From assembly GCA_029167045.1 (NCBI GenBank), contig JARFPK010000005.1, positions 1 to 64,000 of the forward strand: a stretch of 64,000 bases of DNA, in the 5' to 3' direction. Each line of letters starts with the position of its first letter. Positions within the stretch are counted from its first letter, which is position 1. The stretch is from Candidatus Methanocrinis natronophilus. GTDB lineage: Archaea; Halobacteriota; Methanosarcinia; Methanotrichales; Methanotrichaceae. The position numbers were made by a program, and so were the translations under genes. Under the pieces are notes generated by a model, which was given only the letters and a program-made list of their open reading frames with translations, was not told where the DNA came from and ran no database searches. Below are positions 22,301-58,965 of the stretch, in pieces.

Positions 22301-22306
22301 AACACA

Positions 22307-22320
22307 TTTATTACTAAATA
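22307..22320 (+). promoter_or_regulatory. Probable TATA region for nikR
   Basis: TTTATTACTAAATA lies about 35-40 bp upstream of the nikR ATG at 22351, the spacing expected for an archaeal TATA box with a short leader. AGGTGAT at 22340 provides the ribosome site. No clear palindromic NikR operator is seen by eye. Confidence 0.4.
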
Positions 22321-22350
22321 AGACTACAATCATCTTAATAGGTGATAATT

Positions 22351-22773: not shown

Positions 22774-22862
22774 CTATCCCTGTGCCGGATAACTTGGAGA
22801 AAAGAGGCTTCGAGATTAGCACTGACCCACAGTAAAATTCCGCAACGATACCAACCACGTTA

Positions 22863-23129: not shown

Positions 23130-23308
23130 GGATTCAAGTAGAGATTTTTAACATAGTCTGATTAAAAATGGGGTGGAGGGCCCCCAACCCTGACCATAGA
23201 CCCGGCCCTAGAGTACCGTTTCTTCCCTCCATGTTCAGGAGGCCAGATTGATCAAAAGGAGGGATAAGAAGATCCCTTACCCAGATCAATCGGAATGGTC
23301 GGGATCAC

Positions 23309-24597
23309 TCATGCCACTGCCGGATAGTAGTAGGTGTTCTTGTTAGCGACCTCCTTTGAGATCCCCATCAAATCCAGATACTCCAGGTGGGCCTCACTCG
23401 GGTTCAGGTCGTCGAAGATATCCGGATAGAACCATTTCGCCAGTAGGAGTAGCGCCGACGGATAGTTGGGGGTGATGGCGTAATCGTTGGTGATAATGTA
23501 GACCCGGTCGTTCTTTACTGCGTCAACCGCGTCAAAACCCGGAAGGGTTTTTTTTTTAATCTGATCGGAGCAGGCCCGCAGGTGGGAGTCATCCTCGTCA
23601 TCATAGGGCCTCAACCAACCTGCCATCGCCCTCCCTACGATCACTTCTGGGTTTTAGCTCAAGGACCCACTCCGTCTCCATCTCGCCGTACTCACTTTCT
23701 CCATCTCCTCTGTAGAGCGAAGGGTGGCCTGCGGCGATGTTCACCCCGCCCGCCAGTTCAATGAGGTTTGAAGCGGGATGGTCCTTTCCGATGACCGTCC
23801 TGGATTATATCGTATCGGAGGTGGACTCCAGGTAGACCCTTACCCTCTCCCTCTGGGGGATCTCGGAGATTCTGGCTTCCACAGGTCCGACGTACCTGTC
23901 ATGCCACTCCTGGTATCTTACGGCCTCCTCCCTTGCATTCAGGACGTATCCGAGGATCGATACGCTGTCCCTGATAGAGTCGATCCCACAGGGACCCCCA
24001 CCGGTGCAATCGAGTCCGAGTATAGGGATCTCCAAGGGTAGCTTTACATATAGGTTTTCTTTGTTCGGTATGGTGTGGGCTATTATCAGGCCAGGATCCA
24101 CGGATATGACCGCCTAGATGTCCACTTAGGCAATGGTTCCGATGTTCTTCGTCTTGCTTATCTTCGGGAACCTATTGCCTTGTGTTTTGAAGGTCTCTCT
24201 TACCCCGACCACCTGCTCTCAAGCTCCGAGGATCTGGAGGATCTCGGCGCACTGGTGGTTGTAGATGACGATCCTTTCCACAGGCACCTTTACTGTAACG
24301 GCGTTCCCTTCGGAATCGATCACACTGATCTCGGGTGGCGTCCCTCTGATGATCTCCTCTATCAGTCGTATGTCCTCTTCGTCGACCTTACCATCGCCGT
24401 TGACATCGGCCAGATCCGTCATCCTTTCTGTCCCGGCCATGATGGCGCGGGCGTATTCGATATCTCTCTCGTCTATGATATCGTCCATGTTAGCGTTGCC
24501 GTAGACGTTTAGGGAGAAATAGGGAGAAATCGGCTGCCGATATCCCTACCATCAGGCATAGTGCCAAGATTGATGCCAGCATCTTCTCTTTCATAGC
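23309..24597 (-). pseudogene. Dockerin-linked ABC transporter substrate-binding protein, decayed
   Basis: The pieces, in order, form one protein: a signal peptide (MKEKMLASILALCLMVGISA), an EF-hand dockerin-like repeat (LADVNGDGKVDEEDIRLIEE), then a TroA/FepB-like metal-chelate-binding fold (VPVERIVIYN, IPILGLDCTGG, DHPASNLIELAGGVNIA, GFDAVDAVKNDRVYII). It is broken by a 10-bp tandem duplication near 24507-24526, in-frame TGA, TAG and TAA codons around 24113-24218, and later frameshifts. Relatives bind iron, cobalamin or nickel complexes at the cell surface. Proximity to nikR favours nickel, as inference only. Confidence 0.8.
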
Positions 24598-24829
24598 CTA
24601 TTCTCCTTCTTACCCTTCTTCTATACTCTTATATCCTTCAAGCCCAGTTTAAGGGAATCTTCTCATAAATAGTAATATTCTACATGCAAGAATTCTTCTT
24701 TTTTGCTATAAAAAGATTGTTAGATAAAAGTATATGAGAATTAGTGCAATAATTGTAGCTTAAAGAAGTGATATCATCGTCGCATAAAACCCCTACAATC
24801 TTGCGTCATCCCTAAGTCGGGAATCGCCG

Positions 24830-25047
24830 CTAATAGGTCGTAGCCTTCTTGTCCTTTACCTTCTTGATCCAGGATTGGACCTGTAGCTCTCCAGGAGCAT
24901 TGTAAAAGATGTTGTTGATCTCCACAGTGTCGAAGAACTGGGCGTATTAGGCGAGCCACTCTCCCTTCTTCTTAGCCAGTCCCATGGGGTAGAAGCGACC
25001 CACCCAGTCGTCATAGGACCTGCTGCTGCAACCTACCAGTATGGTCA
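24830..25047 (-). pseudogene. DUF72 (YecE-like) protein fragment
   Basis: The minus strand gives TILVGCSSRSYDDWVGRFYP, then WLA, an in-frame TAA, YAQFFDTVEINNIFYN and a WIKKVKDKK segment, the N-terminal part of a DUF72 TIM-barrel protein. Only about 70 of roughly 250 residues remain, ending at a TAG. DUF72 has no firmly established function. Confidence 0.65.
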
Positions 25048-25093
25048 TCGCGGATCTCCGTTGCATATCCTGCTGGAGTCTATCCTTCCTGGA

Positions 25094-25980
25094 TCAGCGT
25101 TTCCACTTGATGGTGTCTCCCTTTATCTTCAATACACCACTCTTTTCCAGCGATTTCGCGATCTATCTTGACGTATCTGTTCCATCTATCACGAGGACAT
25201 CCTCGTCATAATTCTTTTTGGTGACACACTTATTGGTGAAGTCCTCCCTCTCCATCTTGCCTGAAGACGAATCCATGAGATTTAATACAATGTCTGCCAT
25301 ACATTGGATCTTGACGAACTCCTGATAATACGATTCCTTAAACTCCTCATCGATATCATCTAATAAGGTGGTAGAAAACTCGTCAATATAAATATCTCCC
25401 ATAGGCTTGAAAGTAAGAACCGCAGTCGTCCTTATCGTCCAGCCATCATCAATCTCCTCTGGGTCTACTAAAACTTGGGCGATGGGATCGTCGAGCCGAT
25501 TACCTACTTCTTCACCAAACTTGACCTCATTTAGGTCCAAGAGTCTCGCGGCAAATGATATGCCATTGGATATCTTCGTAAGATCCATTACCAGATTGGA
25601 GACATCACTCCAGATTTGTATAGCCTTCTCTTCTGTTAGATCCGAATCGACAGCTTGATTACCCTCAATAATATCTTTACCTCGCTCTCTCTTTTCAACA
25701 ACTTCTGGGTCAAACTCGACCTCAAGCATCCCCTCAAAAGTTTCTGGGGTGACTCCTTTGGCAAGAACGGCTTTTTTAAGAGCAGCCAGATATCGCTCAT
25801 GATCTGCATACTCCTCGTCATCTATCTTACCCTTTATTTCACTTAGACGACCTCCAGATAATTGTACTCTTTGGTATAACCATCGATATAAGTTCTGATG
25901 TCTACCTTCATTCCAGCGTCTCTTAGGTACTTTGCGACTTCTTTAGCCTCATCCTCGTAGAAATCCCCTAGCTTAAGCAT
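25094..25980 (-). pseudogene. Hypothetical protein gene with frameshift and in-frame TAG
   Basis: ATG 25980 opens 45 codons (MLKLGDFYEDEAKEVAKYL onward). A one-base shift near 25862 moves the coding character to a second frame that continues as LSEIKGKIDDEEYADHERYL, LAALKKAV and so on, through the 188-codon open stretch 25163-25729. It stops at a TAG (25163-25165), after which the same frame reads IAKSLEKSGVLKIKGDTI to a TGA at 25094. Restored, it would be about 290 residues, acidic and helical. The family is unknown to me. Confidence 0.55.
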
Positions 25981-26040
25981 AGTACAAGGAACTATTCTCT
26001 ATCTTTAAGAACATGACTCTGCATCTTAATATCCTCATAG

Positions 26041-26277
26041 ATGGTGGCTGAAATAGACGAGCCAACTGGCTTATGGCTGCTTTCTGATCACTTGATGAAT
26101 AAAAGAAATGATATAAACGAAAAGTACGACTATCGCTACTCAGTCCTTCCCATCGTCTTTGCTCGGTTGATCGAGGAAGGATGGATGGATGGATGGATGG
26201 AGTATGAAGATTTAGCAGGCATATCTGGTGAAAAGTTGGAGCCGATCCGCCAATTCACGGGTGATAAGTTGAGATGA
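26041..26277 (+). CDS. Small hypothetical protein with a GGAT microsatellite
   Basis: 78 codons, hydrophilic, ending in EDLAGISGEKLEPIRQF. Codons around 26178-26200 consist of about five GGAT units, encoding GWMDGWM. Change in unit number would shift the frame, so the gene could be phase-variable or recently altered. There is no clear ribosome site. No family is recognised. Confidence 0.45.
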   Translation: MVAEIDEPTGLWLLSDHLMNKRNDINEKYDYRYSVLPIVFARLIEEGWMDGWMEYEDLAGISGEKLEPIRQFTGDKLR

Positions 26278-26334
26278 TTATATCGAAAAGGAGAGATGAA
26301 AATTGGGAGGGTTTGGATGCGCCTGAAGATCTAT

Positions 26335-26742
26335 TCAGGCGCTCATCTTGGACTTGGCGATGTACTTGATCATATCTGGCGATAGTCTGGTGCTCAACTG
26401 GACCTGTGATCGAACGCTGTCGATGCTCTCCCCGCCAGAGATAAGGTCACCTATCTTCTCGATATCGCTCTCTTCGACCACGTAGTACTCGTCCACGTCC
26501 TTCCTGTGTCCCCAGACATCTCCTTCGAGCAGGTCAACTCCCTGCATCTGTAGGAATAGCCTGATAGCCTTGGACATGGTCTTATTATAAGATGGAGGTA
26601 CCTGGACCGCCCTCAGCCTCGGGCACGCTTTGATGAGGTCCAACATATCGACGTTGGATGGTCTGAATGCTACATGGACGATCCGCTCGTTCGGATTCAA
26701 TTCTGCTATCTCATTTCTTGAACTGACAACTCGTATTCTCAT
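26335..26742 (-). CDS. DUF1699 family protein
   Basis: A 135-residue protein matching the DUF1699 family known from Methanosarcinia: an N-terminal MRIRVVSSRNEI, then RIVHVAFRPSNVD and LQMQGVDLLEGDVWGHRKD. The function is unknown. ATG 26742 follows AAGGTGAAATACC, a good ribosome site. The frame is intact, in contrast to most neighbours, which suggests it is under selection. Confidence 0.8.
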   Translation of the reverse strand: MRIRVVSSRNEIAELNPNERIVHVAFRPSNVDMLDLIKACPRLRAVQVPPSYNKTMSKAIRLFLQMQGVDLLEGDVWGHRKDVDEYYVVEESDIEKIGDLISGGESIDSVRSQVQLSTRLSPDMIKYIAKSKMSA

Positions 26743-27190
26743 GGTATTTCACCTTAATATTCACCGAGATGAAATCTGAGTATTAATAGACATTTGCAGT
26801 AGATACTAATGTATATATCAATATCTAATGACCTATTTTCAAGATAATTAAAACGAATTTTACCTGGGAAGATCAAGACCATATAGCTGGATCTTGTTGT
26901 AATGTAGGCATCGGGCAAATAGCCAAAATTAGATATCTTCACCGCGATTTCAGTATAACATCGTCCTGATGAGGCAGATTCATCCGCCAATCAATGCGAT
27001 AGTAGAAGGGAGCGTCAGGAGAGGCTAATGAAGGGGGCATTATTTGGCTCCTCTCCTGACCATCGCTCATAGCGTAGTGAAAGGATGGAATTTGAGGGCG
27101 GCTCATGTCTTCCATCCCATCCATTATCTAATGTACAACATCATAGAAAAGCTAGAACCTCGTGGCGCGAAAATATTCCCGCTGGCTCCT
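26743..27190. other. AT-rich intergenic stretch containing hairpin copy 1
   Basis: No supported gene is present. The left half is AT-rich and would carry the promoter of the DUF1699 gene. The right half contains the hairpin at 27014-27060. Short frames here lack ribosome sites and family resemblance. Confidence 0.5.
27014..27060. repeat. Hairpin repeat, copy 1
   Basis: A perfect 11-bp inverted repeat, GTCAGGAGAGG (27014-27024) and CCTCTCCTGAC (27050-27060), with a 25-nt loop. The surrounding 60 bases resemble 29546-29607 (AGAAGGGAG, CAGGAGAG, TGAAG, ATTTTG/ATTTGG, CTCTCCT in the same order). It could be a structured RNA, a terminator or an element end. Confidence 0.65.
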
Positions 27191-27402
27191 TTAACCGAAT
27201 ATTCCCGCATCGCGGACCACATATCTCACTGTCATACCCGGCGAGACCTTCACACCCCTATTACGATAGGCATCGATCGATGAAGCCTGAACGCACCTCC
27301 ACCTCTTATCGTAGCTGAGTTTGCTTATCCGTCGGTGGATGATCATCTCGGAGGGATCTGTCCGCTTCAAATCGCTTCTCAGCCTCCGCTTCTCCGGGCC
27401 GC
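27191..27402 (-). pseudogene. Fragment of the C-terminal end of a family B DNA polymerase
   Basis: The minus strand reads a continuous frame with DPSEMIIHRRISKLSYDKR, then a Ser/Ala-rich step, then RNRGVKVSPGMTVRYVVRDA, matching in order the thumb segment near the C-terminus of archaeal PolB (PPEKLVIHEQI ... RGVKIRPGTVISYIV in Thermococcus-type enzymes). It ends at a TAA and has no start. About 70 residues remain. The identification is from memory of the family. Confidence 0.5.
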
Positions 27403-27671
27403 ATCATAATACCCGAAGCAGTGGCATTCCCCATCAAAGACAATACGAGGACGATTCACAATAGGATCCTATTCATTACCGAAGCATCTCCTTCTGCGTT
27501 AACAAGCTTCTTCAAAGGTTGCTTCTCCCCTAAATCATATATGCGCCGTATGGAAAAAAATTATCCCCAAAGGATATCTAAAAGTTCTTGCTGTAAAGGT
27601 CAATCCCAGGCATGATCCAGTTAAAATGGGAGAGCGCACCACCAAAAAACAGAAAATGCTGCAACTTCCCC

Positions 27672-28433
27672 TTATGAGGTCACTTCGTAGGTGACGAAAA
27701 CCCTAGATCTGACCTCCATCATCCCGGGTTCTGGATAGATAGCTGCATCGAACGGATCGTATTGCTTGTCCCAGAAGAGGTCAAAGAAGTCCATCATCCT
27801 ATACCTCATCGGATAGGGATCTAAAGGTATCTGGCGAACTACTGGACTTGACCTCTCGATGATCTCCAACCTTTTATCTAGCTTCATTCCTGCTGCGGAG
27901 GCTAGAGATTCTGCGACATCCTTAGCGTTTTGGATGGCCATCTTACGTGCTTCGGCAAATGCTGCGCTCCTGTCTTCCAGAGCATACCCGATTATCGAGG
28001 CTTCTGCGCCCTCAGCCTCGGCCACTTCAAGAGTTCTGTTGATCAGATCCTCGTCTTTAGCCTCGAATCTGATTGTAACCCGTTCTTTGACCGAGATTAC
28101 CGCTTCTTCCGCGACCATAACGCACGATGAGTTGTTGCAGACTCGGCTCATGGTCTGGGTACTTGAAACACTTCTGTCACGACCAGTTTGGAAGTCAAAT
28201 TTATCGAGACCTGCGTAAATGAGAGCCTCTATCGTTCTGTTAAGCACCTCGGTGCTATACAACGATGCTCGGGTCAGGTTCTCATCCGTCGAGGTGGAGC
28301 TGACCGAAACGTAGACAACATCAGCTGGGACGAGAACCCTTCCGTCTCCAACGACGGTCAATGCCATTACATCCTCAGCTGCCCCCGAGAGGATCATAGC
28401 CGATAGACATAACAGGATAGCCAAAGCTTTCAT
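27672..28433 (-). CDS. Secreted SIMPL (DUF541) domain protein
   Basis: 253 residues with a signal peptide (MKALAILLCLSAMILSGA) and a SIMPL/DUF541 domain: LTVVGDGRVLVPADVVYVSV at its start, a repeated Asn-Arg-Thr pattern and the AEARKMAIQNAKDVAESLA helix. The family is periplasmic or extracellular and of poorly known function. It lies 75 bp downstream of the curlin-like repeat gene on the same strand and may be co-expressed with it. Confidence 0.85.
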   Translation of the reverse strand: MKALAILLCLSAMILSGAAEDVMALTVVGDGRVLVPADVVYVSVSSTSTDENLTRASLYSTEVLNRTIEALIYAGLDKFDFQTGRDRSVSSTQTMSRVCNNSSCVMVAEEAVISVKERVTIRFEAKDEDLINRTLEVAEAEGAEASIIGYALEDRSAAFAEARKMAIQNAKDVAESLASAAGMKLDKRLEIIERSSPVVRQIPLDPYPMRYRMMDFFDLFWDKQYDPFDAAIYPEPGMMEVRSRVFVTYEVTS

Positions 28434-28508
28434 ATCATTCCCTCAAACCAATCTGATCATAATCCTAAAAACATGAGACGGAGTTTCGATCCGTCTCGAT
28501 ATGACCTA

Positions 28509-29267
28509 TTAGCCTACCCAGACCATGTTTTGGGCCGACTGCATCACCTCTGATCCAGGTCCGGATCTCCCCGTGAAACCGATCCCCTGATCGAATGAGT
28601 TCCCATACGGGTTTGGTGTCTGGATGATATTGCTTCCACTCTGGAATATAGGGCCGTTTCCGTAGCCGACCATGGCGTAGCCTGAGATGTATTGACCGAC
28701 GTCATTGTGGGATCCTGCGATGTAGGCGAAGTTGCTCATATCCTGAACAGGGTCACCACACCCAACGGGCACTACAGGTCTAGTCCTGGCGTGAGCGAAT
28801 GTCTTCTGAGTAAGAGAATTGGCGTGGCCTATGATCGTACCCGTATTGTGGCCGGTCTGGTAAATCTCGTCCCCAAAAGCCCACTGGGATACGCTCTGGG
28901 TAACGTCGTTGTAGTGGCCGACGACGGCGACGGCGTTAGCTCCAGCCTGCATTATGTGGCTCCCGTGTGCGTTCTGATGGATACCCTGGTTGACATCGTT
29001 GCAGTTCCCGACGACTACCGCCGCGTTAGCTGCGCTCTGGGTAATGTAGTTTCCCTGGGCGTTCTGGTTGATGTTCTGGTTCACCTGGTTGTTAGAGCCG
29101 AAGACAACCGCCGAGTTTGCGGCGCTCTGACTGACGTACCCTCCCTGTCCGTTCATGCTGATGCTCTGGCTTACGGTATTTCCACCATATGCCATTGCTG
29201 TGGACGATGCTACGAGCAGGACCATCAGCAATGCTGTGGTCCACCTTGACATCTTTGACGGTTTCAT
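28509..29267 (-). CDS. Secreted curlin-like 30-residue repeat protein
   Basis: 252 residues. A signal peptide (WTTALLMVLLVASSTAMA) is followed by about seven units of roughly 30 residues with the pattern N-x-V-x-Q-x-I-x-x-N-A-x-G-x-x-I-x-Q-x-A-x-N-x-A-x-V-x-G. Units 1-4 are regular and later ones drift. Regular Gln/Asn with alternating hydrophobic residues is the signature of curlin (CsgA/CsgB) beta-solenoids that form extracellular amyloid. ATG 29267 is preceded by a GGGGG/GTGA ribosome site. The assignment is by repeat pattern. No CsgG or CsgE-like exporter is seen nearby. Confidence 0.75.
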   Translation of the reverse strand: MKPSKMSRWTTALLMVLLVASSTAMAYGGNTVSQSISMNGQGGYVSQSAANSAVVFGSNNQVNQNINQNAQGNYITQSAANAAVVVGNCNDVNQGIHQNAHGSHIMQAGANAVAVVGHYNDVTQSVSQWAFGDEIYQTGHNTGTIIGHANSLTQKTFAHARTRPVVPVGCGDPVQDMSNFAYIAGSHNDVGQYISGYAMVGYGNGPIFQSGSNIIQTPNPYGNSFDQGIGFTGRSGPGSEVMQSAQNMVWVG

Positions 29268-29654
29268 TTCACTAACCCCCGTTAATCTTGGCCGCAATGC
29301 GCCAAGAGGAGGACGGTGTCCCCCCCTACCCGCAGGCAGGAGTGGCTAAATCGCCTTCAATCTCCGCCTCCAACAACACATCAATCCCCTGGGCTTAAAT
29401 GGTTATTTTTCATGTAGAACTTACGTAGGACCGATGTACAATCTCCACGATCCGATAGAAACCAGCCACCCTCCTTAACTGGGACTACGTTTCAGAGAAC
29501 CCGTTCTCAGAGGTGAGCCTCATCACTGGATAATCAAGGCGATTTAGAAGGGAGTAGCCAGGAGAGATCGGTGAAGAGGTCTATTTTGTGTGGATCTCTC
29601 CTTACCTAAGGACAGATCATTGTTAAGGAATGGTTTACTGCCCTACAGAAGAAT
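29268..29654. other. Intergenic stretch upstream of the curlin-like gene
   Basis: No gene is supported. It contains the probable promoter region of the curlin-like gene and, at 29546-29607, hairpin copy 2. The right boundary is MITE copy 2. Confidence 0.5.
29561..29601. repeat. Hairpin repeat, copy 2
   Basis: A perfect 9-bp stem, GGAGAGATC (29561-29569) and GATCTCTCC (29593-29601). The stem sequence differs from copy 1 at 27014 while pairing is kept, and the flanking AGAAGGGAG and loop TGAAGAGG/ATTTTG match copy 1. Compensating changes in the stem argue for a selected structure. Confidence 0.6.
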
Positions 29655-29864
29655 AGGCACCTCGCTGTTTAATGTGGTTAAACCTTAGGGGCCGCAGATC
29701 CAGTAGTCCGGTCTTTTCACGACTTCATGATCGCCTGAAATCAGAACCCTCAATAGATGTATCGCTGCCTGCCTACATATCGGCAGGACTCATGGCAAGG
29801 ATTTGTATGATTGAGATCGATAATCGCTATCCTGAAGTTACCCACACAGAATAGCGAAGAGCCA
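29655..29864 (+). mobile_element. MITE copy 2 (about 210 bp)
   Basis: The left end is AGGCACCTCGCT and the right end AGCGAAGAGCCAT, whose reverse complement is ATGGCTCTTCGCT. It is close to copy 1 throughout and encodes IEIDNRYPEVTHTE followed by a stop near the right end. It sits between the curlin-like gene and srp54. Confidence 0.75.
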
Positions 29865-29913
29865 TAAAAACCCCTAGAAAAATAGACGGAGAAATGAGCG
29901 AGTTCGCGACGGC

Positions 29914-31257
29914 CTACATCCCGCCGCCGCCCATCATGGGGCCGAACTTCTTCATCATCCGCTTCATCCCCATCTTGTTCATGCCGCGCATCCCCTTGAG
30001 GGCCTTCTGCATAGCCTTGTGGGACTTGAGAAGCTCCCGGACCACCTCCGGGGGCGTCCCGCTCCCCCGGGAGATCCGCTTTATCCGGGAGGCGGTGATG
30101 ATCTTGGGGTCCTCCAATTCCGCCTCCGTCATGGAGGACATGATCACCCGGTACTTCTCGAGCCGGTCCTTTGTGACCTGGTACTCCTGGTCGGAGAGGT
30201 CGACCCCCAGCCCCCCCAGGGGGAGCATCTGCATGATCTGCTTTAAGGGGCCCATCTTGTTGATCGCCTCCATCTGCTTGCACATATCCTTCAGGGTGAA
30301 CTTGCCCCGCATCAGGGCCTCCACATCCACCTCATCCTCGACCTTCGTCTCCTGGGCCCGCTCGATGAGGGTCTTTATGTCGCCCATCCCCAGGAGGCGG
30401 GATATGAACCGGTCGGCCTCGAACCTTTCGAGGTCGCTGGGGGTCTCGCCGACTCCGATGAAGGCGACGGACGAGTTCGTCTCGGCGACGGCGGACATGG
30501 CGCCGCCCCCCTTGGCGGTCCCGTCGAGCTTGGTGATGATGACGCCGGTGATTCCAACAGCCCGGTTGAAGGCCTTAGCCTGCTCGCTCGCCTGCTGGCC
30601 GATGGCGGCGTCCATGACGAGGAGCTTGTGGTCGGCGGTGACGACGGCGTCGATCTCCATCATCTCCTGGATGAGGTCCTCCTCCAGGGCGTGTCTTCCG
30701 GCGGTGTCGACGATCGCAACGTCGTACTTCCTCGACGCCTCCAGGCCACGCCTGGCGACGGCGGGGGCGTCGGGGTTACCCTTCTCGCCGTAGAAGAAGA
30801 CCCCCTGTTTCTCGCAGAGGGCTTTGAGCTGGTCGAAAGCCCCAGCCCTGAAGGTGTCGGCGCAGACGACGGCCGACCGAAGCCCCTTCCTCTGGAAGAA
30901 GGTAGCGAGTTTAGCCGCGGTGGTGGTTTTACCACTGCCCTGAAGGCCCACGAGCATGATAGTCTGCTTCTCGAGGGATACTGGAGAGCTCTTCCCGACG
31001 AGGTTTATCAGCTCCTGGTAGACGATGTTGATGACGTGCTCCCGGGGATTCATCCCCGGGGCTGGCTTCTCGGAGAGGGCCCGGTCCCTGATCCTATTGG
31101 AGAGGTTCATCACCAGCTTGACGTTGACGTCGGCCTGGAGGAGGGCCCGCTGTATCTCCCTGACCGCCTCGTCGACGACCTGCTTATCTATCCTGCTGGC
31201 GGAGGCGATCTTCTTCAGCGCCCCCCTCAGCGACCCGCCAAGGCTTTCCAGAACCAT
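29914..31257 (-). CDS. srp54: Signal recognition particle GTPase SRP54
   Basis: 447 residues: the N domain, then the G domain with P-loop [21 protein letters not shown] and [14 protein letters not shown] motifs, then a methionine-rich M domain ending in [11 protein letters not shown] that binds signal peptides and 7S RNA. It directs membrane and secreted proteins to the translocon. ATG 31257 is preferred over an upstream TTG (31266). The gene lies close to tRNA-Arg on the same strand. Confidence 0.97.
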
Positions 31258-38931: not shown

Positions 38932-40098
38932 ATGTTATCAGTGGGGCTGGCGGGAAAGCCCAACGCCGGGAAGTCCACCTTCTTCAAGGCGGCTACCCTC
39001 GCCGAGGTGGAGATAGCAAACTACCCCTTCACCACGATAGATGCGAACCACGGGGTCTCCTACGTGAGGGTCCCTTGCCCCTGCCGCGAGCTCGCGACGG
39101 AGTGCGACAGGTGCCGGGACGGCGTGAGGTACGTCCCCGTGGAGCTGATCGACGTGGCTGGGCTCGTCCCCGACGCCCATCTCGGCAAGGGCCTCGGTAA
39201 CGAGTTCCTCGACAGCCTCCGGGTCGCCGAGGCGGTCATCCACGTCCTGGACGCCTCCGGCTCCGCCGACGCGGAGGGTAACCCCGTCGGCGTAGGAAAT
39301 CACGACCCTCTGGCGGATGTGGAGTTTCTCAAGCGCGAGATCGGGATGTGGCTCTTCGGGATCCTCAACCGCAACTGGGAGAGGCTGATGAGGCGGGTCC
39401 GGGCCGAGGATATCAAGGTCGAGCCGCTGATCACCGAACAGCTCGCCGGCGCCGGGGTCGCAGACCACCACGTCCGTTGGGCCCTGGCGACGATGAAGAG
39501 CGAGCCCTCCAGGTGGGACGAGGAGGAGATGAAGAGGTTTGCGGGGCTGCTGCGGGACGCCAGCAAGCCGATGATCATCGCCGCCAACAAGGTGGACGTC
39601 GCCCCCCCGAAGTTCGTCGCCCGCCTGCAGGCGCTGAAAGAGATCGTCGTACCCACCAGCGCCGCCGCCGAGGTGGCATTGAGGATGGCGGACAAAAGCG
39701 GCGCGATCCGGTACCGACCGGGGGACGCGGACTTTGAGATGGTAAAAGACCTCTCCGGACCCCAGAAGGCGGGGCTGGAGAAGATCCGGGGGATCCTGAA
39801 GGCGACCGGCGGGACCGGGGTCCAGGAGTGCCTCGACCGGGCGGTCTTCGAGCTCCTCGAATACATACCCGTCTTCCCGGTGGAGGACGAGGGGAAGTGG
39901 ACGGATCGAAACGGGGTCGTCCTCCCGGACGCCTACCTGATGAAGAAGGGCTCGACGACGAAAGACCTCGCCTACCGGATCCACACCGAGATCGGGGAGA
40001 GCTTCCTCTTCGCCCTGGACGGGCGGTCGAAGAGGAGGCTGGGGGAGAAGCACGAGCTTAAGGCGGGGGACGTGATAAAGATAGTGTCGACGAAGTGA
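38932..40098 (+). CDS. YchF/OBG-type GTPase with TGS domain
   Basis: 388 residues. G1 GLAGKPNAGKSTFFKAAT, G3 DVAGLVPDAHLGKGLGNEF, G4 ANKVD, and a C-terminal TGS domain ending LKAGDVIKIVSTK. A cysteine cluster (CPCRELATECDRC) lies in the G2 region, as in archaeal members. The family associates with ribosomes and tRNA. Its cellular role in archaea is not settled. ATG 38932. Confidence 0.93.
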   Translation: MLSVGLAGKPNAGKSTFFKAATLAEVEIANYPFTTIDANHGVSYVRVPCPCRELATECDRCRDGVRYVPVELIDVAGLVPDAHLGKGLGNEFLDSLRVAEAVIHVLDASGSADAEGNPVGVGNHDPLADVEFLKREIGMWLFGILNRNWERLMRRVRAEDIKVEPLITEQLAGAGVADHHVRWALATMKSEPSRWDEEEMKRFAGLLRDASKPMIIAANKVDVAPPKFVARLQALKEIVVPTSAAAEVALRMADKSGAIRYRPGDADFEMVKDLSGPQKAGLEKIRGILKATGGTGVQECLDRAVFELLEYIPVFPVEDEGKWTDRNGVVLPDAYLMKKGSTTKDLAYRIHTEIGESFLFALDGRSKRRLGEKHELKAGDVIKIVSTK

Positions 40099-40175
40099 AG
40101 GGCGAAGGAGCCGGGGGGGGGGGCGGACGTAAAGCATAAACGCGAAAACATTGTTCGCCAGATTGGAGAGGTAAT

Positions 40176-43100
40176 ATGAAAAATAATGACAATCAAAAAA
40201 ATCTCCCTAAATGTGGATTGATACAAGCGCTAGCTGAGAAAGCAAATCAAAGAGATGATATCGGTTTTAATGTTTTAGGTAGACTGGACGAGTTCCGTCA
40301 GAGGGTAACCGGAGAAGTGCGGCAAATAAATGAACTGTTCCCAGAGTATACACCACATGATGAGGTGTATCATCTCAAGCGACTCTTCTATGTTGCCGAT
40401 ACAGTCTTGGGTGAGGAGCGTATTAATTCCATGAATGTAGGTGAACTTTTTGTTCTGTCAGTTGCGTTATATGGGCACGATTGGGGAATGGCCGTAAATG
40501 GCATAGAGAAAGATTATATAATAAATGATAGGATCCCGAATGATACAAATCCTGAAGAAATGTGGATTTTGCCGGATGAAAGAAATCGATTTAAGTTATT
40601 TGCTCGCGATCAACAACTTCTAGATGATGATGGCAATTTGAAAGATATTTCAGTCGAAATATGGAGAGAATATGTTCGACAAACCCATTCATTTCGTAGT
40701 GGGGAAAAAATCAGGAAGTTCTTCGAGCCTATTGACGGCGGTGTCGCCGATGCTGCATCACGAGTTTGCATTGGACACTGGCTCGATTTTGAAAGTCTCC
40801 AAGATCATGATTCATTTCCAATAAATTTCTCAACGATGAGGGATGTAGTAAATATTCGTGCTCTGGCTGTCTATCTCCGTCTTATTGATTTGTTAGATTT
40901 GGCCGAGGATCGAACTCCTTATGTAATTTGGAAGTTCGTTGCTCCGAGAAATTCAAGATCTAAGATGGAGTGGCTTAAACACCGTGCTCTTAGGACTGTA
41001 ACTTGTCCAGCATACCTGGAAGGGCGAGTCATACGAGTTGATGGTAGCACAGATGACCATAATGTATATGCAGCTCTTGAGGATTTTCGAATTTGGTGTG
41101 AGATTCAACTAAGAGGCTGCACTGATGTTTTAGCCAGAATGAATGATCCCCGCCATAAATTGGATATATATCACATCGATTGGCACATAGACGCAAGAGG
41201 ATTTAAAAAAACATCTATAGGATTCAAGTTTGATCGGGAGCGAATGTTCGAGATTCTTGGAAGCGAAATATATCAAGGCGATCATTATGTCTTCCTCCGA
41301 GAATTGCTCCAAAATAGCATAGATGCCATTCGCATGAGACGCGAAATCCTTCTTAAATATGCAAAAATCGAGGCGAGTAACCTTGGAGTTATTAATGTCG
41401 ATGTAAAACATATTGATGATAATATTATTATAACATGGCGCGATGATGGCATCGGCATGGATGAATATATGGTTGAAAATTACCTAGCCGTAGCTGGAAA
41501 GAGCTATTATTGGAGCCAAGATTATGAGAAATTTGGACTTACAATGGATCCAATTTCCCGCTTTGGCATAGGTATTCTAAGTTGTTTTATAGTGGCTGAT
41601 TCTATAGAAATAGAGACCTACAAAGATCCGAATCTGTTTCCAAGAAGTGAACCACTAAGAATAACAATCCCTGATCAAAATAAGCAGTTTCGAATCCAAA
41701 TTCTTTCAGATGTTGGTTTAAGAATCGGAACCACAATTCGCGTTTATATTAACAAAAAAAAGATATCACACGACAACAATATGTTTAGTTTTATGAAAAT
41801 TACTGAATATCTTTCCATTATTGCTGGTTTCGTTGAATTTCCAATAGTTATAGATGAAGATAATCGAAAAACAATCATTATTCATCCAAACCAAAATGGC
41901 GAAATGATTAAGGAACGTTTAGGGGAAGATTATACAATCCAGCAGTTAGATTTGAATTATCCTTTTTCAGACGTATTTATGCCGCAGGATTTATCGAATG
42001 CAAAAGAACTCCTTCGAGAGAATAAGTTCGATATCAATTCCGATTTAGGATTTAGTGATTTTGAAGGCTCACTAACATGCCTAGTGCCAAAAAGTGAAGA
42101 AATGCAAGTTGGATCGACGGGAGGGATATACGTTAGAGGTGTCAAGGTAGATAAAAATATAAGATCAATTCGACAAAAAGGAATTCGACGAAAAGAAGAA
42201 TTGGGCTTTAGTTCTATATCTCGTAAAAATATCTCTATATACAAGGATGGCATATTAGTTCCATTGGATGAAACGTTTTATTCTTCGCTTAGTTATTCTA
42301 ATAGTAAATTTGATTCTTCTTCATTGATATCCCTACGAATAAATCTTTCTAAAAAGAAGGCACCTTCTCTGGATGTATCGCGAAAAAGATTTTATGAAAA
42401 AGATGAACCGTGGTTCAGTCCAATACGAACCAAATACGTAGAAAAAATAAATGAAATATATATAGATAAACTGAGTTCTCTTGATCCATTTGAACGGCTT
42501 TACCTGATGGGATGGATTATTTACCAATACCCGCTAATTTCCATTAAAGATTTATGGGATGTTTTTCCAAATGATCTTTGGCCTATTTTCTCTTTAAAAG
42601 CTGGTGGGGAATTAAATGTAGTGAAGTTTAAGGACATAAAAAAGATAAAAATAGACGCATTCCCCTGTAATACTAATCTTAATTTGGGGGAGTTAAAAAG
42701 TTTTATATCATCGAAAGTAAATAAATATAATTATAGTGGATATATTAATAAATGGGCAGGTAATGAGGCTATTATGGTTCCAAGTGATGATTTTTTAGTA
42801 ATTAGATCAAGTAGGTCTTTTACTTCTACTCCTGTAGGTTTAAAAGCGTCAGAAATTATCGAATTTCCAATACATAAGTCGTATTTTGCCTCATCTATTA
42901 AATTTAATAATCCTCCTTGGGTTGGCAATCCTCCATTATACCAAGTAGAACTTTCTCCTAATGAACCTTTAAAAGAAAATATTGATAAATTCCTCTTATT
43001 AGAGAAAGCAATTCAGAATCCAAGATCACTCACTGCTTTCGAATTGAACCAATTATCTGAAATGACACATACTAGAGTTGCCAATTTTTCCAAGCCTTTT

Positions 43101-43460
43101 GATAATCTATTTGGATATGGGCGGGAATTAATGAATATTAATCATCCTGTCGTTCAAGAATTAATTAGGATCTTCTGTAGCATAGATATAAATGATTCGT
43201 TGCCAGAAATCAAAAGGGGCGAATTTAATGATTTAAAATATAATTTATTTAATTTTGGATTGACTAGTAGTTCCGAAAAGCTAAAACATATAAATAAAAA
43301 TTTGAATAAGATATTTTTATTTTGCGAGAAGAACAGCATTATGGACTACTTTGCTACTGACATATTAACATTAAAATATAACGACTTTGTTCCTGGTACA
43401 CTAAACAATAGAAAAATTAGGGTCACAAAAGACATCCCATTCTTTGGTGAGCAGTTATAA
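40176..43460 (+). CDS. HD-domain / Hsp90-like (GHKL) ATPase fusion, probable conflict-system protein
   Basis: 1094 residues, strikingly AT-rich compared with its neighbours. N-terminal part: an HD-type region with YTPHDEVYH (His61, Asp62, His66) and YGHDWGMA (His101, Asp102), then HSFRSGEKIR near 171. A GHKL ATPase core follows: ELLQNSIDA (Glu376, Asn380), DDGIGMD (Asp424) and SRFGIGILSCF (462-472). The long C-terminal half has no recognised domain. This is the architecture of HD-containing Hsp90-like proteins found in microbial defence loci, not of housekeeping HtpG. GGAGAGGTAAT precedes the ATG. It stands alone between housekeeping genes, with composition indicating acquisition. Confidence 0.8.
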   Translation: MKNNDNQKNLPKCGLIQALAEKANQRDDIGFNVLGRLDEFRQRVTGEVRQINELFPEYTPHDEVYHLKRLFYVADTVLGEERINSMNVGELFVLSVALYGHDWGMAVNGIEKDYIINDRIPNDTNPEEMWILPDERNRFKLFARDQQLLDDDGNLKDISVEIWREYVRQTHSFRSGEKIRKFFEPIDGGVADAASRVCIGHWLDFESLQDHDSFPINFSTMRDVVNIRALAVYLRLIDLLDLAEDRTPYVIWKFVAPRNSRSKMEWLKHRALRTVTCPAYLEGRVIRVDGSTDDHNVYAALEDFRIWCEIQLRGCTDVLARMNDPRHKLDIYHIDWHIDARGFKKTSIGFKFDRERMFEILGSEIYQGDHYVFLRELLQNSIDAIRMRREILLKYAKIEASNLGVINVDVKHIDDNIIITWRDDGIGMDEYMVENYLAVAGKSYYWSQDYEKFGLTMDPISRFGIGILSCFIVADSIEIETYKDPNLFPRSEPLRITIPDQNKQFRIQILSDVGLRIGTTIRVYINKKKISHDNNMFSFMKITEYLSIIAGFVEFPIVIDEDNRKTIIIHPNQNGEMIKERLGEDYTIQQLDLNYPFSDVFMPQDLSNAKELLRENKFDINSDLGFSDFEGSLTCLVPKSEEMQVGSTGGIYVRGVKVDKNIRSIRQKGIRRKEELGFSSISRKNISIYKDGILVPLDETFYSSLSYSNSKFDSSSLISLRINLSKKKAPSLDVSRKRFYEKDEPWFSPIRTKYVEKINEIYIDKLSSLDPFERLYLMGWIIYQYPLISIKDLWDVFPNDLWPIFSLKAGGELNVVKFKDIKKIKIDAFPCNTNLNLGELKSFISSKVNKYNYSGYINKWAGNEAIMVPSDDFLVIRSSRSFTSTPVGLKASEIIEFPIHKSYFASSIKFNNPPWVGNPPLYQVELSPNEPLKENIDKFLLLEKAIQNPRSLTAFELNQLSEMTHTRVANFSKPFDNLFGYGRELMNINHPVVQELIRIFCSIDINDSLPEIKRGEFNDLKYNLFNFGLTSSSEKLKHINKNLNKIFLFCEKNSIMDYFATDILTLKYNDFVPGTLNNRKIRVTKDIPFFGEQL

Positions 43461-43975
43461 TAGCTTTGAACATAATAAGTTTTTAAAATGAATTGTTTTT
43501 TTTAAAGAGCAACGAACTTCTCAGTCTGGACGAACATATAGCCAGAGCTGAATGCAGCATGGTCGTATACTCTTACCCTGTAAGGGTCGATCATTTTACA
43601 CGGCGTCAGAAAGCCTAACTATCGTGTCGAGCGAGGCGATATACTTGATTTGCCTTCAATTCCCTCGATAAAAGTCAGCGGACCTGCTTCACAAAATTTC
43701 TGGGACTGAACTCTCTGGCCTCGCCCTCAACTGCAGGGCTTGCCCTCCGCCTTTCGCCGTCGACCTCCCGCCGCCTCTTCTCGCCCGCCCCCGATCCCCG
43801 CGCCTCCTCCCTCGGCCACCCCCAGCCATCCCCGCCCCCGCGATCGCGGAGGCGTATTATTTTGCCGGCCGGCGGCATATTCGCTATTTTTGAGCAACAG
43901 TTATCATTAAATATCATACCGCCAAAAACTTAATAACCGACTCTGAGCGCTATTAAATCCTGGGAGGAATAAGCC
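43461..43975. other. Intergenic stretch after the HD-GHKL gene
   Basis: No gene is supported. The left part is AT-rich like the upstream gene. 43690-43860 is very GC-rich and low in complexity, with short palindromes (CGCCTCC...GGAGGCG around CGCGATCGCG). The right end has ATTAAATATCAT near 43903, a candidate TATA for the flavoprotein gene. Confidence 0.5.
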
Positions 43976-44524
43976 ACGAAAGCTATAGGAATCGTAGGAA
44001 GTCCCCGGAAGGGCGGCAACGTCGATCGGCTCGTCCAGGAGGTCTTGGACGGGGCCGAGGAGGTGGGCTATCAGACCGAGGAGTACATCCTCAACGAGCT
44101 GAACTACTCCGGCTGCCAGGGGTGCAACCACTGCAAGACCGCCGACGAGTGCAGGGTCGATGACGACATCTCGGGGCTTCTGGAGGATATAAGGGAGGCC
44201 GACGCCGTCGTCTTCGGCTCGCCGATATACTTCCACCTCTTCACCGGCCAGTTCAAGCTGATGCAGGACCGATTTTACTCCTTCATCGACTCGGGGTTTC
44301 GCTCCCGCCTGGCGCCGGGAAAGAAGGCGGTGATCGTCACCAGCCAGGGAAACCCCGACCTTTCGGCCTTCGAGAAGGCCGCCGACGACTTCGCCGAGGT
44401 TCTCCGGTTTCTCGGCTTTGAGGTCGCCGATATCATCCGGATGGGAAGCGGCGGCCCCCCGGACGCGGTCCTGGAGAGGAAAGATCTCCTCGATCAGGCG
44501 AGGTCGGTGGGATCGTCCCTCTGA
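43976..44524 (+). CDS. Iron-sulfur flavoprotein (flavodoxin-like FMN reductase), apparent ACG start
   Basis: 182 residues. The FMN phosphate loop GIVGSPRKGGNVDRLV lies at the N-terminus, then a cysteine motif SGCQGCNHCKTADEC typical of archaeal iron-sulfur flavoproteins, then AVVFGSPIYFHLFTGQFK and AVIVTSQGNP. It serves in electron transfer or oxygen/peroxide defence. The in-frame codon before the conserved start is TAA. The only codon at the proper place after GGGAGG is ACG (43976). The next conventional start, TTG 44045, would remove the FMN loop. Confidence 0.85.
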   Translation, partial: TKAIGIVGSPRKGGNVDRLVQEVLDGAEEVGYQTEEYILNELNYSGCQGCNHCKTADECRVDDDISGLLEDIREADAVVFGSPIYFHLFTGQFKLMQDRFYSFIDSGFRSRLAPGKKAVIVTSQGNPDLSAFEKAADDFAEVLRFLGFEVADIIRMGSGGPPDAVLERKDLLDQARSVGSSL

Positions 44525-49601: not shown

Positions 49602-50773
49602 GAGGATTTCGATTATCAGCAGATTAGCATTCTCTGAGTGGTTTTCCCTTAACGTTTTCGATTAGAACGATCTATTAACCGGTTTGTTTTCCTTGTTATG
49701 ATCAATTTTGAGCTGTTTCCACCTTCTTACTCATCCATTTCTCGATTTCTCGATAGCTAACGCTATCCCATCTCCTTTTTGACGAGCCCGTACAGATTAT
49801 ACAAATTATAACTTATGGCACTAAACATCACTTTTACCGCCGCTTTTTTAACAGTTGTAACCCTTACATGACCCGCGTTGAACACGGTCTTTATAACGCT
49901 GAAACATCGTTCGACAGGTGCTCGCTTCTTGCTGATTCTTTTGTTTCTCAAGATATCCGAGATTCCGAGAGGATGTCCTCTTGCTGCCCTCTTCATGGAT
50001 GCATCATACCCTTTTGTCTTGGCTCCTGAGTAGCCTTTATCACCATACCGGACTTCACCCTCTTTAGCCAGATCGACCTTGCTGTCATGAACCGATCCAG
50101 TGGTCGTCGCGACAGCCCAGATGAACTGGTTTTCAGTATCGACTTTGACATGAGCCTTGTATCCGAAGTTGGACTTCTTACCCTTAGTTGCCCAAGTGCC
50201 ATCCTTGCTCCGCCTTGTCTTGGCTTCACCTCCACGGGGAACATCCTTCTTCGCATGACCTGGATCAGAAGTTATGATAGATGCGTCCTGGATAACACCC
50301 TTCTCTACGTCGTACCCCTTAGCTCGAATCTGGTTTGTGAACTCATCCCATATCGCTTCGTATTTACCCGATTCTTCGAGTCTTTTGCGAAAGAGCCAGA
50401 CTGTAGTGTAATCGGGGATGGTCTCGGTCGTCCCAAGGAAGACTCGAAATGAAATTCTGTCTGCAACCTGAAGCTCCAATTGAGGGTCAGAAAGACCGTA
50501 GAGCTGCTGGAGAATTAAAAGTTTGATCATTATAATTATGTTTATATTAGGTCGGCCGCCTCGCTCGGTGTTGTTTTTATAAAGGCCAACACCGATGGGT
50601 AAAAACGCATTCCAGTTCACAAGTTTGGATATGGTTGAAAGCTTATCACCACGGGTTAACACGTTTTCATTATATTCCTGCAAAATTGAGAAATCTATGA
50701 GCGTCCTCATAACTCTTAATATAGTATTTATAGTATATATACTTTTCCATTAATTAGGTTTTTCGAAATCCTC
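49602..50773 (-). mobile_element. Complete IS5-type insertion sequence (about 1172 bp)
   Basis: Terminal inverted repeats are GAGGATTTCGA (49602-49612) and TCGAAATCCTC (50763-50773). They are flanked by a direct 4-bp target duplication ATTA at 49598-49601 and 50774-50777, as expected for the IS5 group. The single transposase gene fills most of the element, so it may be recent and active. Confidence 0.85.
49763..50710 (-). CDS. IS5-family DDE transposase
   Basis: 315 residues. An N-terminal DUF772-like segment (NINIIIMIKLLILQQLYGLS) is followed by catalytic residues: Asp in VIQDASIITSDPGH, Asp in EVRYGDKGYSGAK, and Glu in KKRAPVERCFSVIK. The C-terminus has the usual NLYNLYGL. The frame is intact and bounded by good inverted repeats. 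Confidence 0.93.
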   Translation of the reverse strand: MRTLIDFSILQEYNENVLTRGDKLSTISKLVNWNAFLPIGVGLYKNNTERGGRPNINIIIMIKLLILQQLYGLSDPQLELQVADRISFRVFLGTTETIPDYTTVWLFRKRLEESGKYEAIWDEFTNQIRAKGYDVEKGVIQDASIITSDPGHAKKDVPRGGEAKTRRSKDGTWATKGKKSNFGYKAHVKVDTENQFIWAVATTTGSVHDSKVDLAKEGEVRYGDKGYSGAKTKGYDASMKRAARGHPLGISDILRNKRISKKRAPVERCFSVIKTVFNAGHVRVTTVKKAAVKVMFSAISYNLYNLYGLVKKEMG

Positions 50774-58352: not shown

Positions 58353-58965
58353 GATCACCGACCCCGTCAAAATATATGGTTCTCTATGGAGTCTTTCGGT
58401 CATAAGCCGATCGGCCCGGGAGGGAGGGGGGGCTGGTTAGAAGAGTGGCTTATTCGCTCGTCCTCTGGACGGCGGGAGTTGGGGGGGGCGTCTGGTGGGG
58501 CCGGCGGGAAGGATGGGGGCGGGGGATCCGGGAGGGGCGGGTTCGTTGATGATCCGGTGGGAACTGACTTCGTCGGAGATTCGGCGGGATCTTAGCTTGA
58601 TGCTCACGTTTTCGTTCCTTCTTTCGGGAGCGCGGTCTTTCGTGCATGACTCCAGGGTTGGTATGGGTTTTTATAGCATCCTCCAGATCAGGACGCAGAT
58701 GGCCTTCGGGACTTGGTCGCCAGTCGTCTGACTCCGCAGGGCAAGGGACCGAAGGGGCGAGTGCGTATGATCAGAAATTCGACACCCAAGGAGCATTCTA
58801 TGGTCGTGTCTTCCAAAACAGCATATATGAAAAGATAATAGTTTCAACGCAGATTCGGTGAGAAGGTGACAGATTTGATCTTTGAAGGCGCTAAAGGTTT
58901 GTCCGATGGAAAGGCGGAATTAAAGATCGTGGGTAATGATGAGGCGGCTTTCGGGGAGACAATTC
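58353..58965. other. GC-rich non-coding stretch before the restriction-modification gene
   Basis: No gene is supported. 58430-58500 shows similarity to 57215-57290 (TTCGCTCGTCCTC, GACGGCGG, TTGGGG), a further sign of local duplication. The right end becomes AT-rich and carries the leader of the restriction-modification gene. Confidence 0.45.

What the first reader, a model, noticed from the sequence alone, without database searches (positions are those of the whole stretch)
40176..43460. AT-rich lone HD + Hsp90-like ATPase giant: candidate undescribed archaeal conflict gene
A 1094-residue protein joins an HD-type metal-binding region (HDEVYH at 61-66, HD at 101-102) to a GHKL ATPase core with intact N, G1 and G2 boxes (376-380, 424-428, 464-467) and a 600-residue C-terminal half with no recognised domain. 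It is far more AT-rich than both flanking housekeeping genes and has its own ribosome site. It has no tRNA or integrase next to it. Related HD/Hsp90-like fusions are predicted immune proteins in bacteria. A single-gene archaeal version of this size would be notable.
Basis: partly seen in the sequence, partly recalled or inferred. Interest (0 to 1): 0.8.

Follow-up and report, generated by a model that had tools for sequence, protein, structure and literature searches.

The report
Archaeal HD–Hsp90 predicted antiviral protein
This methanogen carries one large, apparently borrowed gene that joins a metal-dependent HD enzyme to an Hsp90-type ATP-driven switch; it is probably a self-contained antiviral suicide protein of an already predicted kind, sitting at a spot in the genome where close relatives carry quite different genes.

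Summary
Residues 55-279 are Pfam's HD-CE domain (2e-35). Residues 351-789 model as an Hsp90 N plus middle domain (Z 24.5 to TRAP1), so the "600 residues without a domain" shrink to about 300. HD and ATPase residues are invariant where present in 46 aligned sequences. No match in the 8 other genomes of the genus. At the same intergenic site one relative has nothing (73 bp), one a WD40-Roc-metallophosphoesterase protein, one a TPR protein plus another. The protein groups with bacterial ones; a relative lies between phage capsid and terminase genes. In other archaea HD-CE heads NB-ARC/TPR proteins. Best reading: a single-protein immune receptor with HD effector, Hsp90-like ATP switch and fast-diverging C-terminal sensor. 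This class (HD-CE effectors with HSP90 modules in place of STAND switches) was, as I recall, predicted by Nicastro et al. 2023; I could confirm only its citation. So: probably a real conflict gene, not undescribed; new member of a known kind. New are the archaeal cargo-swap site and the near-complete Hsp90 clamp in a genome without detected Hsp90. No activity is shown.

The parts
40176..43460 (+). Whole gene: HD-CE / Hsp90-like N+M / C-terminal domain, 1094 aa
40165..40172 (+). Ribosome-binding site GGAGAGGT, 3 bases before the ATG
   Evidence: read from the sequence
40338..41012 (+). HD-CE domain, residues 55-279 (H61, H66, H101-D102, R168, H171, H201, D238)
   Evidence: Pfam PF24391 2.2e-35; residues invariant where present in 46 rows and in 18 rows found without peptide patterns
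41211..41855 (+). Hsp90-type GHKL N-terminal ATPase domain, residues 346-560 (E376, N380, D423, G425, G427, G464, G466, G518-T519)
41856..42554 (+). Hsp90 middle-domain-like region, residues 561-793, with R736 in a SRxxF motif
   Evidence: structure match over 351-789, Z 24.5, 309 residues; other Hsp90 rows reach 793; profile alignment to HtpG; R736 45 of 45
42555..43457 (+). C-terminal domain, residues 794-1094, fast-diverging, no good fold match; proposed sensor
   Evidence: modelled as residues 788-1094
40116..43793 (.). Variable site: the stretch between the conserved flanks (73 bp in the empty relative G006)
38932..40098 (+). Left conserved flank: Obg-like YGR210/TGS GTPase gene, 91-96% identical at full length in 5 genus mates
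43963..44524 (+). Right conserved flank: NADPH-dependent FMN reductase / flavodoxin-like gene (start codon not determined)

Best explanation
The gene encodes a one-protein immune receptor of the HD-CE plus HSP90-module class, gained by horizontal transfer, most likely from bacteria, and placed in a cargo-swapping intergenic site. Proposed action: at rest the HD enzyme is held silent. The C-terminal domain (about 794-1094), helped by the middle domain, recognises a product of infection. ATP then closes the Hsp90-like clamp (E376/N380 in the N domain, R736 from the middle domain), pairing or freeing the HD domains, which hydrolyse phosphate bonds of nucleotides (or of a nucleic acid or signal nucleotide) and stop the cell before the virus spreads. 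Shown: domains, residue conservation, transfer-like distribution, variable site, fast C-terminal divergence. Inferred: every functional step and the direction of transfer.
For: HD-CE 2.2e-35 and HATPase_c_3 2.1e-5, just at its cut-off; HSP90-family profile 1.4e-24. AlphaFold model mean pLDDT 85.6; Hsp90 N+M match 351-789, 309 residues, rmsd 3.5, Z 24.5 to TRAP1, above topoisomerase and gyrase rows at about 18. In 46 aligned sequences: H61 and H66 43 of 43 rows with a residue there, H101, D102, R168, H171, H201 44 of 44, D238, E376, N380 and the G boxes 46 of 46, R736 45 of 45; the HD residues, N380, G464 and G466 are also invariant in 18 rows. Profile alignment to three HSP90 proteins, E 2.4e-30, pairs R736 with the SRE arginine of E. 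coli HtpG in its realigned output. Gene in 1 of 9 genus genomes and 4 of 50 family genomes. Site states: empty in G006; WD40-Roc-metallophosphoesterase in G005; TPR plus another protein in G003. Trees: sister to the Methanothrix protein (95/90; 93/81), in a clade with Chloroflexi and Planctomycetota proteins (100/98; with a Dadabacteria protein added 99/98), while the other near-full-length archaeal relative, L029, stands elsewhere. Relative between phage capsid and terminase genes. Relatives beside Mokosh-like and ShosTA-like genes. HD-CE followed by NB-ARC or nSTAND3 and TPR in 6 of 10 other archaeal proteins scanned. Window versus its closest relative: 71% identity in HD, 67% in N, 37% in M, 27% in C.
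Against: No activity, infection phenotype or expression is shown. PADLOC has no model for the whole protein; its weak matches (RT_UG24 7.8e-5, REase_II 7.9e-4) cover single domains. Many relatives stand among ordinary genes, and no background rate for defence neighbours was measured. The named relatives were fetched with peptide patterns that include the N box (LRELLQNS) and the HD motif, so conservation of those exact stretches is partly built in. Middle domains often diverge faster than N domains, so divergence alone does not prove sensing. Gyrase and topoisomerase structures also span most of 351-784 at Z about 18, so the fold is not unique to Hsp90. Some loci differ little in GC from their flanks (L073, L075, L080, L083, L090) and one is GC-richer (L084). 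The single-sequence profile comparison of the middle domain was not significant. The trees are unrooted, so the direction of transfer is inferred; in the second tree 7 of 23 inner branches are open and a long-branch warning was given.
Confidence: 0.62

Rival explanations
1. Same receptor logic, but the HD domain is a nuclease or a cyclic-nucleotide phosphodiesterase, not an enzyme that drains free nucleotides (this overlaps the best explanation, which leaves the substrate open).
For: The invariant set H66, H101-D102, H171, H201, D238 resembles two-metal HD phosphodiesterases and Cas3-type nucleases (recalled pattern, no call).
Against: Substrate cannot be read from sequence. The Pfam domain belongs to a set that, as I recall, was predicted to target nucleotides.
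Confidence: 0.3
2. A stress regulator or chaperone: the Hsp90-like clamp senses unfolded proteins and the HD enzyme adjusts a signal nucleotide; not defence.
For: Near-complete Hsp90 N+M module with conserved catalytic-type residues; no Hsp90 (PF00183) detected in this 94.5%-complete genome, so no redundancy is seen.
Against: No match in 8 of 8 genus mates, foreign composition, cargo exchange at the site, a prophage-borne relative, HD-CE on NB-ARC/TPR proteins.
Confidence: 0.12
3. A selfish or addictive cargo gene that spreads for its own sake and gives the host no immunity.
For: Patchy spread and prophage carriage; a copy in pieces in G409.
Against: No mobility gene among eight flanking ORFs, no tRNA within 7 kb, no direct repeat that brackets the gene; no antitoxin-like partner gene seen beside it; some relatives beside known defence genes.
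Confidence: 0.1

Closest known systems
HD-CE effectors coupled to HSP90 modules (Nicastro, Burroughs, Iyer and Aravind 2023, NAR 51:11479, gkad879; content recalled, paper not held; citation seen in the reference lists of PMC10853773, PMC10890737, PMC12839542 and PMC12265719)
   Same: N-terminal HD-CE domain fused to an Hsp90-type GHKL ATPase as the switch; single gene; predicted immune role.
   Different: About 1100-aa subfamily with a C-terminal domain that has no good fold match; in an archaeon, at a cargo-swap site; no wHTH-HSP90_Na-assoc match reported for it at E<=1. Whether the paper lists this very subfamily is not known to me.
Caspase / iHD-CE / wHTH-HSP90_Na-assoc protein of a same-family genome (L046, 1512 aa)
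   Same: HD region (matched by iHD-CE and, overlapping, HD-CE) and a weak Hsp90-like match to this protein, same archaeal family.
   Different: Adds a caspase domain and wHTH repeats; its HD fits the iHD-CE model better.
HD-CE / NB-ARC / TPR proteins of archaea
   Same: HD-CE at the N-terminal side of a large switch-plus-sensor protein.
   Different: P-loop STAND-type NTPase and TPR repeats instead of an Hsp90 clamp and this C-terminal domain.
VcSduA, a Shedu protein with a GHKL ATPase domain (PMC12137116, passages read)
   Same: GHKL ATPase proposed to control an attached effector; shown to act against phages.
   Different: The effector is a PD-(D/E)xK nuclease, C-terminal to the ATPase; here an HD enzyme, N-terminal.
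Clover dNTPase-NTase (PMC12265719, passages read)
   Same: HD-fold enzyme acting on nucleotides in a shown anti-phage system that the paper says was first reported by Nicastro et al. 2023.
   Different: Two genes, controlled by nucleotide signals; no Hsp90 module mentioned in the passages read.
HtpG / TRAP1 / Hsp90
   Same: N and middle domain fold; E, N and R catalytic-type residues.
   Different: Extra HD domain in front, different C-terminal domain, far below the HtpG family cut-off (74 of 371 bits).

Membership tests
HD-CE (Pfam PF24391) | Profile match above the curated cut-off | tested here: met
   123 bits against cut-off 27, 2.2e-35, residues 55-279
HD-CE (Pfam PF24391) | HD-type metal ligands conserved | tested here: met
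   H66, H101-D102, H171, H201, D238 invariant where present in 46 rows and in 18 rows found without peptide patterns
HD-CE (Pfam PF24391) | Hydrolysis of nucleotides | not testable with these tools
   needs purified protein
HSP90-module immune class (Nicastro et al. 2023) | Effector domain fused to an HSP90-type ATPase module | tested here: met
   the definition itself is recalled
HSP90-module immune class (Nicastro et al. 2023) | Protection against viruses | not testable with these tools
   no phenotype data; as I recall, a prediction in the source too
Hsp90 chaperones (HtpG) | N-terminal GHKL domain of Hsp90 type | tested here: met
Hsp90 chaperones (HtpG) | Middle domain with catalytic arginine | tested here: met
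   fold to about 790; R736 aligned with the HtpG SRE arginine, 45 of 45 rows; single-sequence test not significant
Hsp90 chaperones (HtpG) | Score above the family cut-off over the full length | tested here: not met
   74 bits against 371, 349-564 only
Hsp90 chaperones (HtpG) | C-terminal dimerisation domain | tested here: inconclusive
   the 788-1094 model matches no PDB chain well, best Z 4.1
STAND / NLR-like NTPases | P-loop NB-ARC/NACHT-type NTPase | tested here: not met
   no such family at E<=1; it works like one, it is not one
Shedu | PD-(D/E)xK nuclease domain (DUF4263) | tested here: not met
   no match reported at E<=1

The most novel reading that the evidence does not exclude
A complete Hsp90 N-M ATP clamp, with its catalytic residues kept, has become the switch of a one-protein immune receptor in a methanogen whose genome shows no Hsp90. 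Its last 300 residues are a sensor of unknown fold. Methanogens of this genus trade it at a fixed intergenic site for other receptor kinds (Roc GTPase with metallophosphoesterase, a TPR protein with a partner), so the site is an archaeal receptor-swap locus.
Probability: 0.35. Interest if true: 0.65.

Novelty: new member of a known kind. Interest (0 to 1): 0.42.

Why it matters
If the reading is right, the gene shows that an Hsp90-type clamp can do in an archaeon what STAND NTPases do in other immune receptors, with the same HD effector on both platforms. The swap site gives a place to look for further systems in this genus: four of nine genomes could be read across it in full and they show four different states.

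Tried and rejected
Single-protein scan of genome contigs: 11 pattern matches, no relative; solved by using an alignment (136 relatives of which the best 80 were kept as 79 loci). Known-system assignment by PADLOC: only weak, single-domain matches. NF050001 (BbrUII/HgiDII restriction) at 408-562, 28.6 bits against 550, rejected as GHKL similarity. Phage collection: only short Hsp90-like matches (11-14% of the query) on 6 records. PDB fold of residues 788-1094: Foldseek best E 0.85, VIA best Z 4.1; viral library best E 0.89; this does not show a new fold. Hsp90 middle domain by a single HSP90 sequence: not significant; redone with deeper alignments. Bracketing repeats: ten direct-repeat families in 40000-44000, none with one copy on each side of the gene; no shared border sequence in the two border alignments. 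Literature for HD-CE: 'HD-CE' with 'Pfam' 0 papers; 'Calcineurin-CE' and 'PRTase-CE' 0 occurrences in the 20 papers listed of 39; the listings showed no title on an HD/Hsp90 fusion. DefensePredictor paper (PMC13092281, passage search): one HATPase mention, in a legend. Passage searches of PMC3710099 and PMC8195603 showed no HD/Hsp90 fusion. A genome-wide GC comparison could not be made, so composition is judged within the 64-kb window only.

Selections: the 46-row alignment and tree use 45 of the 84 relative stretches listed plus the window protein; the archaeal relative L029 was missing there and was added in a second, 26-row tree. HD-CE architectures: 10 of 14 fetched regions were scanned. 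The neighbour scan used 120 of the 121 proteins (130 aa or longer) listed; L152:4447-5115 was dropped because it overlaps the HD gene; L087 gave no neighbour. The scan had no control set; two of its hits, PDC-S31 (5e-86) and C3a212 (6e-29), were not traced to a locus. The identity table left out L081, L083, L086 and L089 as incomplete.
Full report
What is there. The ORF at 40176-43460 (+) is intact, 1094 codons, ATG start, GGAGAGGT 3 bases upstream. Its GC is 0.352 and GC3 0.289; the neighbouring GTPase gene has GC3 0.892, and the lowest GC of 1083 overlapping windows of the same length outside the gene in the 64 kb is 0.445. The two tRNA genes of the window lie more than 7 kb away. Seven of eight flanking ORFs scanned match ordinary families, none an integrase.

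Anatomy. Pfam gives HD-CE at residues 55-279 (2.2e-35) and a GHKL ATPase at 374-484. NCBIfam's HSP90 profiles match 349-564 (1.4e-24, far below their full-length cut-offs), and the best solved relatives by sequence are HtpG, endoplasmin and TRAP1 N domains. An AlphaFold model built on 46 sequences has mean pLDDT 85.6 and pTM 0.75. Its best structural matches are whole Hsp90s: TRAP1 6xg6_B, 309 residues over model residues 351-789, rmsd 3.5, Z 24.5; other Hsp90 rows reach 793. An isolated GRP94 N domain aligns only 188 residues over 346-569. Gyrase, topoisomerase IV and topoisomerase VI follow at about Z 18 and also span most of 351-784. So a middle domain of the Hsp90 type is present to about residue 790. 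A profile of residues 345-800 aligned to three HSP90 proteins (E. coli HtpG and two Streptomyces proteins) gives E 2.4e-30 over 350-793. The strength comes mostly from the N domain; in the realigned output LDVSRKRF (R736) is paired with LNVSREIL of HtpG. A comparison of the middle domain alone with one HSP90 sequence was not significant. That this arginine is Hsp90's ATP-contacting one, and that E376/N380 are its catalytic Glu and Asn, is recalled knowledge applied to the alignment.

Conservation. Among 46 rows (window included), counting rows with a residue at the column: H61 and H66 43 of 43; H101, D102, R168, H171 and H201 44 of 44; D238, E376, N380, D423, G425, G427, G464 and G466 46 of 46; R736 45 of 45. 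The 45 relatives were fetched with peptide patterns that include the N box and the HD motif, so those stretches are partly conserved by selection; in 18 rows from whole-genome searches that used no such pattern, H61, H66, H101, D102, R168, H171, H201, D238, N380, G464 and G466 are invariant too. The set H...HD...H...H...D resembles two-metal HD phosphodiesterases (recalled). Compared with the nearest relative, the Methanothrix protein L078, identity is 71% in HD, 67% in the N domain, 37% in the middle domain and 27% in the last 307 residues; mean pairwise values over 15 near-complete subfamily members are 46, 46, 22 and 18%. The C-terminal domain folds confidently alone (pLDDT 85.8) but matches nothing well in the PDB or the viral library.

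Distribution and descent. A match is found in 1 of 9 genomes of the genus (two of the nine are under 90% complete and most are drafts), 4 of 50 of the family including a copy in pieces and a caspase-fused relative, and 21 of 392 of the phylum, own genome included. HD-CE as a domain is in 16 of 50 family genomes and 83 of 392 phylum genomes, 61 over the cut-off. Named relatives span Clostridia, Verrucomicrobia, Flavobacterium, Paenibacillus, Chloroflexi, Planctomycetota, Deltaproteobacteria, Methanosarcina and ANME-1. A tree of residues 1-640 puts the window with the Methanothrix protein (95/90) in a clade with Chloroflexi and Planctomycetota proteins (100/98), within a subfamily of 19 rows (100/100) that is otherwise bacterial but for one phage contig. 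A second tree with 26 rows that adds L029, the other near-full-length archaeal relative, keeps the window's clade (99/98, now with a Dadabacteria protein) and puts L029 elsewhere, next to Sphingobacterium (92/93); 7 of 23 inner branches are open there and a long-branch warning was given. Archaeal members thus look like separate arrivals; the trees are unrooted, so the direction is inferred. G426 is the Methanothrix record L078 (same 11154-base contig and gene), so the window is a Methanotrichaceae archaeon; the genus (Methanothrix harundinacea group) is a guess. DNA similarity to the G426 and G291 loci is confined to the gene, so the gene, not a block, is shared.

The site. In genus mates the left GTPase and the right FMN-reductase gene are conserved. 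Between the last and first homologous bases lie 3677 bp here, 73 bp in G006, 3870 bp in G005 and 2595 bp in G003. G005 holds an 1175-residue WD40 / Roc GTPase / calcineurin-like phosphoesterase protein; G003 a TPR protein and a protein with no Pfam match. Both cargoes are AT-rich (0.40 and 0.38 against 0.60 and 0.63). In G002 the contig ends 1.4 kb into a different insert with a NUDIX gene, and in G004 after 0.5 kb. The state could not be read in G001, G007 and G008. So 4 of 9 genomes are readable in full and show four states. No bracketing direct repeat was found.

Neighbours of relatives. In subfamily A the gene is AT-richer than its flanks in 17 of 18 loci with flanks, and in L029; the gap is small in several, and L084 is the exception. 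Of 120 neighbouring proteins within 6 kb (19 loci), PADLOC at 1e-10 lists 17 families, mostly one protein each: Mokosh-like MkoA/MkoB at L085, ShosA at L076 (a ShosT-like protein beside it at 2.8e-9) and a restriction-type helicase at L079 were traced; some others are housekeeping look-alikes such as a polymerase, and two strong ones were not traced. Pfam names many ordinary genes in the same set. No control rate was taken, so enrichment is not claimed. In L152 (IMG/VR) the gene sits between a phage capsid gene and a terminase gene.

Modularity. Of ten other archaeal proteins with HD-CE (one of them also with an HATPase domain), six carry NB-ARC or nSTAND3 plus TPR after it. In a same-family genome a protein joins a caspase domain, an HD region matched by both iHD-CE and HD-CE, and wHTH-HSP90_Na-assoc repeats, with a weak match to the window's Hsp90-like part (4.4e-10). 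On a Pseudomonas plasmid an Hsp90-like ATPase gene overlaps a metallophosphoesterase gene by one base, and on a Pseudanabaena plasmid an Hsp90-like gene with a PF00183 match stands next to a ThsB-type TIR gene. So HD-CE and the Hsp90-like switch each occur with other partners, as effector and switch modules of immune receptors do.

Mechanism. I commit to: C-terminal sensing, ATP-driven closing of the Hsp90-like clamp, and activation of the HD enzyme, which degrades nucleotides or another phosphodiester and arrests the cell. The anatomy, conservation, patchiness and site are shown; sensing, activation, substrate and immunity are inferred.

What is known. Pfam's HD-CE, iHD-CE and wHTH-HSP90_Na-assoc show that the class is on record. 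I recall that Nicastro et al. 2023 defined HD-CE among nucleotide-targeting effectors and described HSP90- and HSP70-related modules as analogues of STAND and GTPase switches. The paper is not in the library; its citation was seen in four reference lists. A sentence in PMC12839542 cites it for phosphoesterases that deplete NTP pools (passage read). PMC12265719 says that its Clover system, an HD-fold dNTPase with shown anti-phage activity, was first reported there (passages read). VcSduA, a Shedu protein with a GHKL ATPase domain that acts against phages, is the nearest tested relative in logic (PMC12137116, passages read). In the listings of nine searches I saw no title on an experimental study of an HD/Hsp90 fusion; the library lacks most subscription papers.

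Verdict. It is a new member of a known, computationally predicted kind; the archaeal swap site and the near-complete Hsp90 clamp in a genome without detected Hsp90 (PF00183) are the parts worth following.

Noticed in passing
58936-61905 (+): AT-rich (GC 0.46) 990-aa MmeI-type IIG restriction-modification protein, 15.5 kb from the gene in the same window.
   Followed up: partly
49766-50710 (-): AT-rich IS transposase gene (DDE_Tnp_1, DUF772), 6.3 kb downstream.
   Followed up: partly
about 19700-30000: AT-rich tract (GC 0.44-0.54 per kb) with mostly small ORFs.
   Followed up: no
L066:4875-8402 (-): At the same site in genus mate G005: 1175-aa WD40 / Roc GTPase / calcineurin-like phosphoesterase protein, GC 0.40.
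   Followed up: partly
L046:3690-8228 (-): 1512-aa caspase / iHD-CE (HD-CE overlapping) / wHTH-HSP90_Na-assoc protein in a same-family archaeon.
   Followed up: partly
L175:3550-7319 (+): Plasmid gene pair: metallophosphoesterase and Hsp90-like ATPase overlapping by one base.
   Followed up: partly
L174:2213-5565: Hsp90-like protein with a PF00183 match next to a ThsB-type TIR gene on a Pseudanabaena plasmid.
   Followed up: partly
L152:774-10823: HD-Hsp90 relative between a phage capsid gene and a terminase gene in an IMG/VR contig.
   Followed up: partly
L158, L160, L161, L162, L164, L165: HD-CE / NB-ARC or nSTAND3 / TPR proteins, 1003-1212 aa, in genomes of the same archaeal phylum.
   Followed up: partly
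L045:12332-14261 (-) and L075:10001-13339 (+): Copies of the HD-Hsp90 gene split into pieces: decay, a frame shift, or an assembly error.
   Followed up: no
40931-40944 and 43507-43520: A perfect 14-base inverted pair, one arm inside the gene and one just after its stop; probably chance.
   Followed up: no
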